From the IMG/VR virus record IMGVR_UViG_3300035698_014782, positions 1-21,562 of that record: DNA of 21,562 nucleotides, one strand, 5' to 3'. A program made the position numbers and the translations under genes. The stretch comes from a virus. Positions 16,670 to 21,045 of the stretch are shown piece by piece. Below the pieces are notes generated by a model. The model made no database searches. It had not been told where the DNA came from and was given only the letters and a program-made list of their open reading frames with translations. How positions within the stretch are numbered: the first letter of the stretch is position 1; each line of letters begins with the position of its first letter.

Positions 16670-17149
16670 ATGAACAAATTGACATGGGCACGTGATGAAT
16701 TGCGACGTGCGGGATATAGCACAGACGATCCTGAAGACGGTCCAGACAAGTGGATCGCCGAGAATGTAATTCAACTGCTCCAAGTATTTTCGGAACAGGG
16801 ACACAGTGGCTCTTCAGCACCGTTTGCAATTAGAATTTTTGAGCAGCTTGCATCATGGAAACCGCTTACACCGCTTACAGGCAATGATGAAGAGTGGCAA
16901 CATTTCGACAATGAAAGTATCAGCCAAAATATTCGCGATTCGTCAGTGTTCAAAAACATTGACGGTGTTGCATATTGGACTGAAGGTAAAGTGTTCTGGG
17001 AATGGTTTTCTTATGAAGGTGGTGAGCCCTACAAATCGTATTTTACAAATTCGGAGAGTAGTGTGGACGTTGCATTTCCGTGGTCGAGACCTGACTCCCC
17101 CCAGTACGTTTTCAAACCAAATAGCACTTACCCAAACGAAGAGCGCTAA
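16670..17149 (+). CDS. Conserved phage protein, 159 aa
   Basis: Uses the 29-bp repeated initiation sequence (AAAGGACGA, ATG at 16670). The N-terminus is a helical domain (WARDELRRAGYSTDDPEDGP; IAENVIQLLQVFSEQGHSG). Then SSAPFAIRIFEQLASWKPLTPLTGNDEEW, NIRDSSVFKN and TEGKVFWEW match a hypothetical protein family I have seen in many tailed phages and prophages. No catalytic motif identified. The C-terminal part includes PWSRPDSPQYVF and is more polar. Function unknown. Confidence 0.78.
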   Translation: MNKLTWARDELRRAGYSTDDPEDGPDKWIAENVIQLLQVFSEQGHSGSSAPFAIRIFEQLASWKPLTPLTGNDEEWQHFDNESISQNIRDSSVFKNIDGVAYWTEGKVFWEWFSYEGGEPYKSYFTNSESSVDVAFPWSRPDSPQYVFKPNSTYPNEER

Positions 17150-17168: not shown

Positions 17169-17297
17169 ATGGTGATACTTGCCTTACTTGGCGCTATTAT
17201 GGTTGGTTGTATTGTTGGATATGGAGTAATGACTCTTTCCTACAATCTCATGCTAAAGAACAAAAATGGAAAAGGAACAAAAAACGATGATAATTAA
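17169..17297 (+). CDS. Small single-pass membrane protein, 42 aa
   Basis: Residues 2-29 form one hydrophobic helix (ILALLGAIMVGCIVGYGVMT), followed by a basic and polar tail (KNKNGKGTKNDDN). The ribosome binding site is weak (AGAAAGAAC). Its last codons overlap the start of the SPFH gene, so the two are likely translated together and may act at the same membrane. No family recognised. Confidence 0.6.
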   Translation: MVILALLGAIMVGCIVGYGVMTLSYNLMLKNKNGKGTKNDDN

Positions 17298-18135
17298 AAT
17301 TGTCAGTGCAGTGTTTGCAGGGATTCTAGCTCTTACAGTCGTAGGTGGAAGTTGGTACACGGTCGATCAAGGTGAACTAGGTGTCCAGCTCCGCAACGGT
17401 GCTTTGGTTGGTGTGGCTGAGCCAGGGCTTGGTTTCAAAGTGCCCGTGATCGACAAAGTTGTTGACATTGACCTTCGCAGCCAAGTCAAAATCTACGAAA
17501 ATGTTTTGACGTATAGCCGCGATCAGCAGACAGCAAGTCTTACTGTTAGCGTAAACTTTCGAGTGCCACCTGGCGAGGTCGTTAGCGTCTATCAAGATTA
17601 TGGAAGTGTGGAACGTCTTGCTGATAGACTACTCGATCGTCAAGTCATGGACGAAACTAAGAATGTTTTTGGTCGGTTTAATGCAGTGACTGCTATTCAA
17701 GAGCGGAGCAGACTTGTAGTGGAGATTCAACAGGCAATTCAAGAAAGTGTCGATGGCCCAATCACAATTGAGAGCGTACAAGTCGAAAACATTGATTTTG
17801 ATGATAGCTATGAAAGAGCGATTGCTGCACGGATGGAAGCAGAGGTAGAAGTTCAAAGGATTGGCCAGAATGCAGAGCGCGAAAAGGTGCAGGCGCAAAT
17901 TAAAGTGATTCAAGCAGAGGCAGATGCAGCATCCCGTGTGGCACAAGCGACCGCAGAAGCACAGGCAATCACTCTTCTTGGCAATGCTGAGGCAGAGGCG
18001 ATCAAAGCAAGGGGCAACGCACTTCGCGATAACCCAAATCTTGTCAGTCTTGTTCAAGCAGAGCGCTGGGACGGCAAGCTACCAACGACAATGTTGCCCG
18101 ATATTACAGTACCATTCATGAACATGAGTAACTGA
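17287..18135 (+). CDS. SPFH/band-7 (prohibitin/stomatin-like) membrane protein, 282 aa
   Basis: A short N-terminus is followed by a transmembrane helix (IVSAVFAGILALTVVGGSWY), then the SPFH domain. Its landmarks are VDQGELGVQLRNG, EPGLGFKVPVIDKVVDIDLR, a beta-rich QTASLTVSVNFRV and VQVENIDFDDSYERAI. A long Ala/Glu/Gln coiled coil (residues about 180-245) and a short C-terminal segment follow. Family members form large membrane rings and in bacteria (HflK/HflC) hold the FtsH protease. A phage copy could remodel host membrane or protease activity; that is inference. ATG 17287 was chosen because AAGGAAC lies 9 nt upstream; ATG 17266 would add seven residues. Flanked by two tiny membrane proteins. 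Confidence 0.87.
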   Translation: MIIKIVSAVFAGILALTVVGGSWYTVDQGELGVQLRNGALVGVAEPGLGFKVPVIDKVVDIDLRSQVKIYENVLTYSRDQQTASLTVSVNFRVPPGEVVSVYQDYGSVERLADRLLDRQVMDETKNVFGRFNAVTAIQERSRLVVEIQQAIQESVDGPITIESVQVENIDFDDSYERAIAARMEAEVEVQRIGQNAEREKVQAQIKVIQAEADAASRVAQATAEAQAITLLGNAEAEAIKARGNALRDNPNLVSLVQAERWDGKLPTTMLPDITVPFMNMSN

Positions 18136-18286: not shown

Positions 18287-18472
18287 ATGCTAATTTGTGC
18301 TGTACAAACAACACAAAGAATATTACGATGCAATCTGATCGGCACGTTCTCTTATCTGGAAGATTTCACAACTGAAACATCTTGTGAAATCTTCCAGACT
18401 GGCATCGACGATGTCGTTGTATTTGATTCTGTTGGACAGACTGCTTTTCGAACAAAAAAGACCACACAATAG
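18287..18472 (+). CDS. Small phage protein, 61 aa, with a coding stem-loop
   Basis: Frame from ATG 18287 with residues such as NLIGTFSYLEDFTTETSCEI and IDDVVVFDSVGQTAFRTKK, which look like a genuine small beta-rich protein. GGAG (18283-18286) directly abuts the ATG, too close for normal use, so the true start is unclear. Codons 23-37 form a 17-bp perfect inverted repeat. It ends 9 nt before the RNA ligase start, whose ribosome binding site overlaps its end. Confidence 0.5.
   Translation: MLICAVQTTQRILRCNLIGTFSYLEDFTTETSCEIFQTGIDDVVVFDSVGQTAFRTKKTTQ
18355..18398 (+). promoter_or_regulatory. 17-bp perfect stem-loop upstream of RNA ligase
   Basis: Positions 18355-18371 and 18382-18398 are perfect inverted complements with a 10-nt loop; no T tract follows. 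It ends 84 nt before the ligase ATG and lies within the reading frame above. It may control or protect the ligase message. Confidence 0.6.
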
Positions 18473-18481
18473 AGGTGCAAA

Positions 18482-19090
18482 ATGAACTACAAATTTCCTG
18501 AAATTAAAACGCTATCTGATGTTCTCCCTCACGTTGAGGGGAGGTCAGAGTTTGTTGTGGCTGAACGTGTGTTTGGCACTGTAGTCAATTATATGGTTGC
18601 AAAGAAAGACACGTTCGATATGAGTGGTCCTGATGATGTGGGTGGTGCGATTCGTCGTGAATGTCGTGGCATCAAATTTGACTTGGATGGAAACATCATA
18701 GCAAGACCCTTCCATAAGTTTTTCAACGTCGGCGAAAGAGAGGAGACACATCCTAACGTGCTGGACTTTTCCGTTGACCACACTGTCTATACAAAGGAAG
18801 ACGGTAGCATGGCACATCCCATCATGTTCAACGGCACTGTACGGTGGTGCACCAAGATGGGACTGACAGACGTGTCTGCTTATATGGACACGTTCTGCGC
18901 GAAGAACCCCAAATACAATCAGTTTGCACGTGATTGCATTGCAGATGGCTACACGCCACTTTTTGAGTATGTGGGACCATTTAACAAAGTGGTAATTGAG
19001 CACAAAGAAGAGAATATGGTGTTGCTTGCTGTACGAAATACCATTACAGGCGAATTTGTCAACATAAACAAGGAGAATGCTAAATGGTGA
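18482..19090 (+). CDS. rnlA: RNA ligase 1 (T4 Rnl1 type), N-terminal half of a split gene
   Basis: Rnl1 joins RNA ends; in T4 it reseals tRNA cut by the host PrrC nuclease. These 202 residues hold ECRGIKFDLDG and RPFHKFFNVGE, diagnostic of Rnl1, motif I KEDGS with the AMP-accepting Lys at residue 105 (T4 K99), motif III PLFEYVGPFNKVV (E162) and IIIa LLAVRNTITGEF. The frame then ends in NINKENAKW and a stop. T4 Rnl1 has 374 residues. The missing motifs IV and V and the C-terminal domain are in a second frame at 19471. Alone this half cannot form a complete active site. GAGGTG precedes the ATG. Either the gene is broken or the two halves assemble. Confidence 0.88.
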   Translation: MNYKFPEIKTLSDVLPHVEGRSEFVVAERVFGTVVNYMVAKKDTFDMSGPDDVGGAIRRECRGIKFDLDGNIIARPFHKFFNVGEREETHPNVLDFSVDHTVYTKEDGSMAHPIMFNGTVRWCTKMGLTDVSAYMDTFCAKNPKYNQFARDCIADGYTPLFEYVGPFNKVVIEHKEENMVLLAVRNTITGEFVNINKENAKW

Positions 19091-19470
19091 ATGTTGGAGC
19101 ACAAGGTGAACTGCGGGGATTACACTCTATGGATATATTCGTCTCAAACATTCCTTGCACAACTTCCCGAGAGTGTGTACCAGCACCTACCAATTCGCAC
19201 ATAAACCATAGAAGTTGATATACAGTGCGACGAGTCGTTAAAGAAAATCGTGTGAAGACTTATTTTGAACAAATTGCCAACAATCGTAAAAGAGCGTGTT
19301 CTTTGGTCTCGCAACTGTGGACAACACGTCCACAATCAGTTATCGTTACCCATCGGACAATAGGTTTATAGACAAATCCTACTCAACGTTCAACATCAGA
19401 TATCAGTCGTCAACTCAACTCAACTGATATCTGATGTAAGTTAATAGAATTATACATTTAAGAGGGACTC
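19091..19470 (+). other. 380-bp insert between the halves of RNA ligase 1
   Basis: No frame longer than 60 codons that I would call a gene. Directly after the stop of the first half an ATG (19091) opens MLEHKVNCGDYTLWIYSSQT and stops at 19202-19204. The same frame continues in a protein-like way (TIEVDIQCDESLKKIV) to a second stop at 19253-19255, suggesting a decayed gene. AAGGAG (19069-19074) could serve a start at 19084 or 19091. A 7-bp hairpin (19316-19322 with 19328-19334) and a 15-bp inverted repeat (19393-19437) follow. I could not identify group I intron core elements with confidence. Candidates are a decayed mobile element, a small intron or a captured gene. Confidence 0.55.
19393..19437 (+). 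repeat. 15-bp perfect inverted repeat before the second ligase half
   Basis: Positions 19393-19407 and 19423-19437 (left arm ACATCAGATATCAGT) are perfect inverted complements around a 15-nt loop containing repeated CAACT. The right arm ends 33 nt before the ATG at 19471. It could be a terminator without T tract, a leader hairpin or an element end. Confidence 0.6.
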
Positions 19471-20028
19471 ATGGACATCATAGAAAAAATCAAAACGTAC
19501 GACATTCCTGTTGTAGTGTCACATGGTAGGTATACTTCTGCAGAAGCATTGCTCGAATTTACTCGTCCTCTTGAGGGCATCGAGGGGTTTGTCGTTGACT
19601 TTGACGGCCACAAGGTGAAGGTCAAGGCTGATCAGTATGTCACGCTTCATAGGGTGAAGGACCAGATTCGAACCGAACGTCACATTCTTGAGATCATCAT
19701 TAATGGAAAACTCGACGATGTTCTCCCTATCCTAGACGCAACAGATCGAGTAACCGTTGAAGAATACCAACAGCGTTTTAACGTGGGGTTCGACGCAGTT
19801 GTGAGTCGAATTGAAGGGCTAGTGTTGCTTGCGCGTGCCCTCCACAGTGGCGACAAGAAGGAAGTTGCCATAAAATTTGTGCCAAATCTCCTACACAAAG
19901 AAGATTCAAGTTTCATATTTCGTGTACTTGATGGTAAAGAATTGCGCCCACATATCATCGAGTACGTTCGCAAAAGCGTAGGTAATACTACACGCTACGA
20001 CGCTCTTCTCAAATGGCTACAAATGTAG
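19471..20028 (+). CDS. rnlA: RNA ligase 1 (T4 Rnl1 type), C-terminal half of a split gene
   Basis: Continues the upstream half. After MDIIEKIKTYDIPVV come motif IV, IEGFVVDF (E38), and motif V, HKVKVKADQYVTLH (K50, K52), the last catalytic motifs of Rnl1, then a helical C-terminal domain of about 115 residues as in T4 Rnl1. Joining TGEFVN of the first half to DIIEKIK here gives an uninterrupted match to the T4 layout, so little protein sequence seems lost. It has its own GAGGG 4-6 nt before the ATG, so it may be made as a separate chain. An in-frame stop (19459-19461) prevents reading in from upstream. Confidence 0.84.
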   Translation: MDIIEKIKTYDIPVVVSHGRYTSAEALLEFTRPLEGIEGFVVDFDGHKVKVKADQYVTLHRVKDQIRTERHILEIIINGKLDDVLPILDATDRVTVEEYQQRFNVGFDAVVSRIEGLVLLARALHSGDKKEVAIKFVPNLLHKEDSSFIFRVLDGKELRPHIIEYVRKSVGNTTRYDALLKWLQM

Positions 20029-20063: not shown

Positions 20064-20114
20064 GTGCAATTACGCATGCTGATTACAAAAGGACTAAAAC
20101 ATGACTTTCGTTAA
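20064..20114 (+). CDS. Possible 16-aa leader peptide before RNA ligase 2
   Basis: A very good ribosome binding site (AAAGGAAGAGG) precedes a GTG opening QLRMLITKGLKHDFR, which ends 14 nt inside the Rnl2 gene. It may be a translational coupler or chance; low confidence. Confidence 0.3.
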   Translation: MQLRMLITKGLKHDFR

Positions 20115-21045
20115 ATTTACATCTATTGACAAGTTCGCTGATGCGTGGAAAATGATGCAACGACAAGAAATTGGCCAGATCCAATACCGCTCCAAAATAA
20201 AGCTGCACGGTACAAACGCCGGAGTTCGCATTGAAGGTGGTCAGCCTTTTTATCAAAAGCGTACTACAGACGTTACACCACTTGCAGACAATGCAGGGTT
20301 CGCATCGTTCGCATGTACTGTAGACTGGAAGATTGACGAAGATATTATCATCTACGGCGAGTGGGCCGGAAAAGGCGTTCAAAAATCTGATGCTGTTTCT
20401 TCGATTCCTACAAAGATGTTGTTTGTTTTCGCAGTGAAAAAAGATGAATACATGATCACTGAACCAGCCGCAATTCGTGAGTATGTACCATACCACCCAC
20501 AGATTGTGATTCTACCATGGTTCGACGAACCAACAACACTAGACATCAACGACGTCAGCAGTGCAAAAGCACTTTCAGAACGTCTCAACGTAGACGTGGA
20601 ACAGATTGGATCAGAAGACCCATTCATCAAAGAGCGTTTTGGTATCTCAGGTGTTGGTGAAGGTCTTGTCGTCTCGCCATGTTCAGAAACTGGTTCGGTC
20701 CCACTTTGGCTTTACAACACATATACATTCAAGGTCAAATCTGATGCTCACCTTGTACAGAAAACTAAAGGAATCAACTCTTCAATCTACATTGAAATTC
20801 CTGGTTCTGTCAGAGAATTCTGTGATCAATTCGTCACGGACAACCGATGTGAACAGATGGTTCAAGAACACCTTGAAGGCTCCTATACTATGAGAGGAAT
20901 GGGGACATTTCTTAAAACAATCAACGCTGATATTCTGAAAGAAAGCAGAAACGAATTTGCTGAACTTGGTGTAGAATGGAAGATGGTTGCAAAGGAAATC
21001 AATAAACGTACTGCGAAATGGTTCAAATCTAAAAATACAGTTTGA
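20101..21045 (+). CDS. RNA ligase 2 (T4 Rnl2 type)
   Basis: A 314-residue ATP-dependent ligase that seals nicks in double-stranded RNA. Motif I is KLHGTN with the AMP-accepting Lys at residue 34 (T4 Rnl2 K35). Motif III is YGEWAGKGVQ (E87), IIIa MLFVFAVKKD, IV GEGLVVSP (E187) and V FKVKSD (K211, K213). A helical C-terminal domain of about 90 residues follows, as in T4 Rnl2 (334 aa). All catalytic motifs are intact. AAGGA lies 8 nt before the ATG. It stands directly after the split Rnl1, giving the phage two different RNA-sealing enzymes. Confidence 0.92.
   Translation: MTFVKFTSIDKFADAWKMMQRQEIGQIQYRSKIKLHGTNAGVRIEGGQPFYQKRTTDVTPLADNAGFASFACTVDWKIDEDIIIYGEWAGKGVQKSDAVSSIPTKMLFVFAVKKDEYMITEPAAIREYVPYHPQIVILPWFDEPTTLDINDVSSAKALSERLNVDVEQIGSEDPFIKERFGISGVGEGLVVSPCSETGSVPLWLYNTYTFKVKSDAHLVQKTKGINSSIYIEIPGSVREFCDQFVTDNRCEQMVQEHLEGSYTMRGMGTFLKTINADILKESRNEFAELGVEWKMVAKEINKRTAKWFKSKNTV

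What the first reader, a model, noticed from the sequence alone, without database searches (positions are those of the whole stretch)
18482..20028. RNA ligase 1 split into two chains, dividing its active site
Seen: motifs I, III and IIIa are in one frame (18482-19090), and motifs IV, V and the C-terminal domain in another (19471-20028). Both have their own ribosome binding site, and a 380-bp insert separates them. Known: all these motifs form one active site in T4 Rnl1. Inference: this is either a freshly broken gene, a gene restored by RNA splicing, or a two-subunit ligase. The halves join at TGEFVN/DIIEKIK with little loss, and both look well conserved, which argues against simple decay.
Basis: partly seen in the sequence, partly recalled or inferred. 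Interest (0 to 1): 0.82.

Follow-up and report, generated by a model that had tools for sequence, protein, structure and literature searches.

The report
Phage RNA ligase made of halves
In a group of environmental phages the tRNA-repair type enzyme RNA ligase 1 is encoded as two separate, well-preserved halves that each carry part of the active site, most likely because selfish DNA-cutting genes (homing endonucleases) repeatedly landed in the gene and the two pieces kept working together even after the invader was lost.

Summary
Window 18482-19090 encodes the N-terminal part of a T4-type RNA ligase 1 (motifs I, III, IIIa); 19471-20028, in another frame with its own ribosome-binding site, encodes motifs IV and V and the C-terminal domain; 380 bp separate them.

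It is not a fresh break. The same break, between motifs IIIa and IV (T4 Rnl1 about residue 190), occurs in 19 environmental phage contigs (15 distinct versions), with no ligase residues lost, catalytic motifs intact and dN/dS about 0.1-0.17. At least nine versions carry a reverse-strand homing endonuclease (GIY-YIG or HNH type) between the halves. Five with both halves in view carry none, and in two of these the halves overlap or lie 1 bp apart in different frames, which excludes intron splicing.

Best reading: homing-endonuclease insertion cut rnl1 into a two-chain enzyme. In the window lineage the endonuclease is gone and the spacer holds the remnant of another passenger gene. Two-chain catalysis is inferred, not shown.

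Known parallels are phage Aeh1 nrdA/mobE and T4 39/60. Phage 133 has an annotated split rnlA, but there the split lies before motif I. An RNA ligase divided through its active site, recurrently and at one site, appears new: a new variant of a known kind.

The parts
18482..19090 (+). N chain of RNA ligase 1 (202 aa): motif I K105 (codon 18794-18796), motif III E162 (18965-18967), motif IIIa
   Evidence: PF09511 E=1.8e-22; motifs; dN/dS 0.117 against L002
19471..20028 (+). C chain of RNA ligase 1 (185 aa): motif IV E38 (19582-19584), motif V K50/K52 (19618-19626), C-terminal domain
   Evidence: tblastn to phage Rnl1 C-terminal parts; motifs; dN/dS 0.106 against L088, with dS near saturation
19091..19470 (.). 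380-bp spacer, holds no homing endonuclease; not an intron known to Rfam
19060..19115 (+). remnant of the ribosome-binding site and first codons of a passenger gene that is whole (121 aa) behind the N half in L002; a deletion between short repeats (CAACAYAAAYAA) fused it to the ligase ORF, giving the tail INKENAKW
   Evidence: 56 nt, 91% identical to L002
19393..19437 (.). stable hairpin (ATCAGATATCAGT...ACTGATATCTGAT) upstream of the C chain; role unknown
   Evidence: fold z-score -3.7, 0 of 200 shuffles as stable
18472..18477 (+). ribosome-binding site of N chain (GAGGTG)
   Evidence: sequence
19462..19466 (+). ribosome-binding site of C chain (GAGGG)
   Evidence: sequence

Best explanation
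This is a 'genes-in-pieces' RNA ligase 1. A free-standing homing endonuclease gene (HEG) inserted into an intact rnl1, in the surface loop between motif IIIa and motif IV. The HEG-bearing inserts seen today have a shared layout: stop codon for the N chain, HEG on the opposite strand with its own T4-type late promoter and hairpin leader, then (clearest in L100, L088, L102, L119) a sigma-70-type promoter, and in all a start codon for the C chain. The insertion therefore turns one ligase gene into two expressed genes. The two chains are inferred to associate and rebuild the nucleotidyltransferase active site (Lys of motif I and Glu of motif III from one chain, Glu of motif IV and Lys of motif V from the other) and to seal RNA as a heterodimer, probably for tRNA repair as in T4. 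In the window phage the HEG has been lost and the spacer holds debris of a later passenger gene, but both ligase genes are kept by selection. Shown: the two-gene structure, the shared break point, HEGs in relatives, purifying selection, insert-free split genes. Inferred: expression of both chains, assembly and activity, the homing event itself.
For: Same break in 19 contigs / 15 distinct versions. Intact sister L089 gives the uncut sequence across the junction. Reverse-strand HEGs in nine versions: GIY-YIG (L100, PF01541 E=7e-5), HNH (L102, L119), others by motif or blastp similarity. Purifying selection: W-L002 N 0.117; L102-L119 N 0.097, C 0.145; L100-L102 N 0.142, C 0.169. All catalytic motifs kept in every version with both halves in view. 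Insert-free split pairs L187 (overlapping) and L188 (1 bp apart), and L170 with a 61-bp remnant of the L165-type insert. No second PF09511 gene in the 208-, 195- and 99-kb contigs. L100's N half is a mosaic: intact-type up to about residue 130, split-type from there to the insert (Fisher p 9e-4 to 2e-7, break point chosen to fit), as expected from co-conversion during homing. In the model of intact L089 the junction lies in a loop between a strand and helix 201-209; modelled alone, the C chain has a confident C-terminal domain but a poorly folded nucleotidyltransferase part (pLDDT 55-72), as expected of half a domain.
Against: No expression, complex or activity data. In the window no good sigma-70 promoter was found just before the C chain, so it may be co-transcribed. 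The window's spacer has no HEG remnant, so insertion is inferred from relatives. Trees do not settle the number of events: group I splits as one clade are not rejected (p-AU 0.64), all splits as one clade are weakly disfavoured (p-AU 0.067). The completeness of the 208-kb contig is not known, so a second intact ligase elsewhere cannot be wholly excluded.
Confidence: 0.85

Rival explanations
1. Recently broken gene (pseudogene) on its way to loss.
For: Two ORFs in place of one; the spacer itself is decaying (deletion, remnant gene).
Against: Split shared by distant relatives; dN/dS about 0.1-0.17 in comparisons between split versions; all motifs intact; insert-free split pairs persist.
Confidence: 0.04
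2. Group I/II intron (or other RNA splicing) restores one message.
For: The gene is interrupted precisely, and phage HEGs often sit in introns; ICP1 splices fragmented genes (PMC10448857).
Against: No intron in Rfam scans of the window and six split loci; inserts share no core; HEGs are antisense; terminator-like hairpins follow the N stop in L100 and L088; L187/L188 have overlapping or abutting halves in different frames, leaving nothing to splice.
Confidence: 0.03
3. Trans-splicing split intein joins the chains after translation.
For: Fractured phage genes with split inteins and HEGs are known (Dassa 2009, cited in PMC10448857).
Against: No intein segments: N chains stop 2-9 residues after the ligase sequence and C chains start with ligase sequence; no intein family among Pfam hits.
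Confidence: 0.01
4. The two halves have separate, new functions (for example the C chain as RNA-binding protein only) and do not form a ligase.
For: Separate genes; the C-terminal domain is predicted to fold well alone.
Against: Motif IV/V residues, useful only together with motif I, are invariant in the C chains, and motif I/III in the N chains; the halves stay adjacent in every contig long enough to show both.
Confidence: 0.07

Closest known systems
Aeromonas phage Aeh1 nrdA-a/nrdA-b split by mobE (Friedrich 2007, described in PMC2988022)
   Same: HEG insertion cuts an enzyme gene into two chains that rebuild a working enzyme; HEG under late/hairpin control
   Different: Different enzyme; a single HEG and lineage described there; here several unrelated HEG classes occupy one site on the opposite strand, and several split versions have lost the HEG
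T4 gene 39/60 topoisomerase split by mobA; split gene 43 of Aeromonas phage 25 (PMC2988022)
   Same: Two-chain enzymes from one ancestral gene next to a HEG
   Different: Not RNA ligases; not split through a nucleotidyltransferase active site
Acinetobacter phage 133 rnlA-A / rnlA-B (HM114315, annotated 'split RnlA')
   Same: RNA ligase 1 gene split in two by an inserted HNH-like ORF
   Different: Break lies before motif I, so all five catalytic motifs sit in one chain; insert is in the sense direction; a single T4-like phage
T4 RNA ligase 1 (2c5u, 5tt6, 9do4)
   Same: Fold, motifs and domain order
   Different: One chain

Membership tests
T4-type RNA ligase 1 (Rnl1) | PF09511 nucleotidyltransferase with motifs I, III, IIIa, IV, V | tested here: met
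   N chain PF09511; all motifs present over the two chains
T4-type RNA ligase 1 (Rnl1) | Rnl1 C-terminal domain after motif V | tested here: met
   tblastn; best structural match of the C chain is 2c5u, prob 1.00 though E=0.05; intact sister matches 2c5u at 1.6e-17
T4-type RNA ligase 1 (Rnl1) | Single polypeptide | tested here: not met
   Two ORFs in different frames 380 bp apart
T4-type RNA ligase 1 (Rnl1) | ATP-dependent RNA sealing activity | not testable with these tools
   Needs biochemistry
HEG-made genes-in-pieces (Aeh1 nrdA type) | One ancestral gene now two ORFs at a clean junction, intact homologues in relatives | tested here: met
   L089 and 71 intact representatives against 15 split versions
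HEG-made genes-in-pieces (Aeh1 nrdA type) | HEG between the halves | tested here: inconclusive
   Absent in the window, present in nine split relatives
HEG-made genes-in-pieces (Aeh1 nrdA type) | Both chains assemble into an active enzyme | not testable with these tools
   Only purifying selection is shown
Group I/II intron | Conserved catalytic core | tested here: not met
   Rfam scans; insert-free relatives
Split intein (fractured gene) | Intein N and C segments at the chain ends | tested here: not met
   Chain ends are ligase sequence plus 2-9 residues

The most novel reading that the evidence does not exclude
The insert is a mobile gene-splitting cassette. HEGs of different nuclease classes, carrying a common late-promoter/hairpin leader, home into the same loop of rnl1 in different phage lineages and each time bring the stop, promoter and start signals that let the cut gene live on as a two-chain enzyme. 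The two-chain state then outlives the cassette, so natural heterodimeric RNA ligases with a divided active site are a recurrent, stable product of homing.
Probability: 0.5. Interest if true: 0.75.

Novelty: new variant of a known kind. Interest (0 to 1): 0.64.

Why it matters
Only a few HEG-made split enzymes are described, each a single case. Here one site in one enzyme shows the whole series in nature: intact gene, gene split by different HEGs, and split gene with the HEG gone and the halves overlapping. That makes it testable whether the two-chain state is neutral, irreversible or useful. It would also give natural split RNA ligases, divided through the active site, as tools, and it shows that annotation pipelines will miss the C half (no Pfam hit).

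Tried and rejected
Intron search with Rfam at gathering and permissive thresholds: only miRNA-like chance hits from the hairpin at 19381-19441. HEG remnants in the window spacer: none convincing; the spacer has no match in GenBank phages. Split relatives in bacterial genome contigs: none found. One origin for all splits: weakly disfavoured. Re-fusion in L089 (nested inside the splits in the quick tree): not needed, since a tree with group I splits as one clade without L089 fits better. Literature: no paper found on a split RNA ligase; the T4-related genome review does not mention one. Several family-search calls failed on wrong coordinates and were repeated. A two-chain structure prediction was not possible with the tool.

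Full report
Observation. Window 18482-19090 and 19471-20028 are two ORFs in different frames, exactly 380 bp apart, each with a Shine-Dalgarno-like sequence. The first matches PF09511 (T4 RNA ligase 1) over model positions 1-158 of 227. The second has no Pfam hit of its own but matches the C-terminal part of phage RNA ligase 1. Motifs I (KEDGS), III (PLFEY) and IIIa are in the first; IV (EGFV) and V (KVKA) in the second. Aligned with T4 Rnl1 (2c5u) the break falls after about residue 190, so K99 and E159 would be in one chain and E227, K240 and K242 in the other (the roles of these T4 residues are my own knowledge). The window is part of a 208,230-bp IMG/VR contig.

The split is old and shared. 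Profile searches of IMG/VR found the same break in 19 contigs with 15 distinct versions, against 71 intact representatives. L002 (N half 92% identical) is the nearest; its contig ends before the C half would appear. L089 is an intact sister and shows the uncut sequence, GKYLNIHEETQDYYILEMISRYNIPVV; the split chains end TGxYLxx and start M(D/N/L)IIxKIxxYxIPVV, so no ligase residues are missing. In the model of L089 (pLDDT 91) the junction lies in a loop between a strand and helix 201-209. Modelled alone, the window C chain has a confident C-terminal domain but a poorly ordered first 60 residues, as expected for half of a shared domain.

Selection. dN/dS is 0.117 for the N half against L002, and 0.10-0.17 for N and C halves of L102/L119 and L100/L102. 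All catalytic motifs are present in every version with both halves in view. No second PF09511 gene was found in the 208-, 195- and 99-kb contigs, though their completeness is not known.

What lies between the halves. In nine versions it is an ORF on the opposite strand with homing-endonuclease features: GIY-YIG in L100 (PF01541) and L165 (43% identical to L100); HNH in L102 and L119 (weak PF01844 plus HTH_23), with L164 60-62% identical to these and L169 related by blastp; GIY-YIG-like by motif in L168 and L172. L088's ORF has no endonuclease Pfam hit but shares the leader described below. By eye, L172 (GIY-YIG-like) and L119 (HNH) share a C-terminal DNA-binding-like region, which would fit a shared target site. 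L086 holds a small sense ORF and L002 a 121-aa sense ORF; both lack Pfam hits. In the window, 19060-19115 is 91% identical to the start of the L002 ORF; the ~70 bp lying between two short repeats in L002 are missing, which fused the ligase ORF to that ribosome-binding site and made its tail INKENAKW.

Insert-free forms. In L187 the C-chain start codon lies inside the end of the N ORF, in another frame; in L188 one base separates stop and start; L170 keeps 61 bp that match the beginning of the L165 insert, so it has probably lost its HEG. These forms cannot be spliced from an intron and show that the two-gene state persists without the HEG.

Mechanism. HEG insertion into an expressed gene is the known route to such genes: Aeh1 nrdA/mobE, T4 39/60 and phage 25 gene 43 (PMC2988022). 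The HEG-bearing inserts share a layout: N stop; HEG antisense; a hairpin leader with a T4-type late -10 box; in L100, L088, L102 and L119 a good TTGACA...TATAAT-like promoter; then the start of the C chain. L100 shows a co-conversion-like mosaic: its N half resembles intact genes up to about residue 130 and split genes from there to the insert. Trees need 3 to 5 changes between split and intact; one origin for all splits is weakly disfavoured (p-AU 0.067) and one origin for the window's group is not rejected. So the split either arose more than once at the same site or was spread by homing.

Prior knowledge. GenBank annotates a split rnlA in Acinetobacter phage 133, but translation shows that break upstream of motif I, with all catalytic motifs in rnlA-B. 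No paper on a split RNA ligase was found, and the T4-related review has none. Among the GenBank phage hits listed here only phage 133 is annotated as split; the unlisted records were not checked one by one.

Verdict. A real, conserved, most probably functional two-chain RNA ligase 1 made by homing-endonuclease insertion; the window copy has lost the endonuclease. That the chains assemble and ligate RNA remains to be shown at the bench.

Noticed in passing
upstream of HEGs, e.g. L004 6260-6345 (minus strand); more than 120 IMG/VR stretches (L295-L414): A shared HEG leader: T4-type late box TAAATA (106 of 125 at the same distance), then hairpin GTAGTTC[A/G]C-GGxx...yyCC-C-AACTACTCTA, then about 21 nt to the ATG of GIY-YIG, HNH or NUMOD3 ORFs. 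Third inner pair is standard in 65 of 67 distinct loops with all four Watson-Crick types (shuffled 31). No Rfam family matches.
   Followed up: partly
window 16670-17149: Tad3 family protein (PF25185, E=1e-36), a type I Thoeris inhibitor, so the phage probably carries an anti-defence gene.
   Followed up: no
L102 11970-12314: Permuted tmRNA of alphaproteobacterial type (tag ANANRAPEMAIAA) on a viral contig that also carries a split rnl1; hints at an alphaproteobacterial host.
   Followed up: partly
window 20101-21045: A second RNA ligase-like gene (PF09414, slightly below cut-off) directly after the split ligase.
   Followed up: no
L285/L286 5316-6570; L161 5433-6471: rnl1 genes broken at other places (about residue 118 and residue 74) by frame changes; could be pseudogenes, sequencing errors or other split types.
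   Followed up: partly
L119 and L100/L102 C halves: C-terminal domains of the ligases are swapped between lineages after motif V, so C-half trees conflict with N-half trees.
   Followed up: partly
window 17266-18135: SPFH/Band 7 membrane protein gene upstream of the ligase, also upstream in L002, L088 and L188.
   Followed up: no
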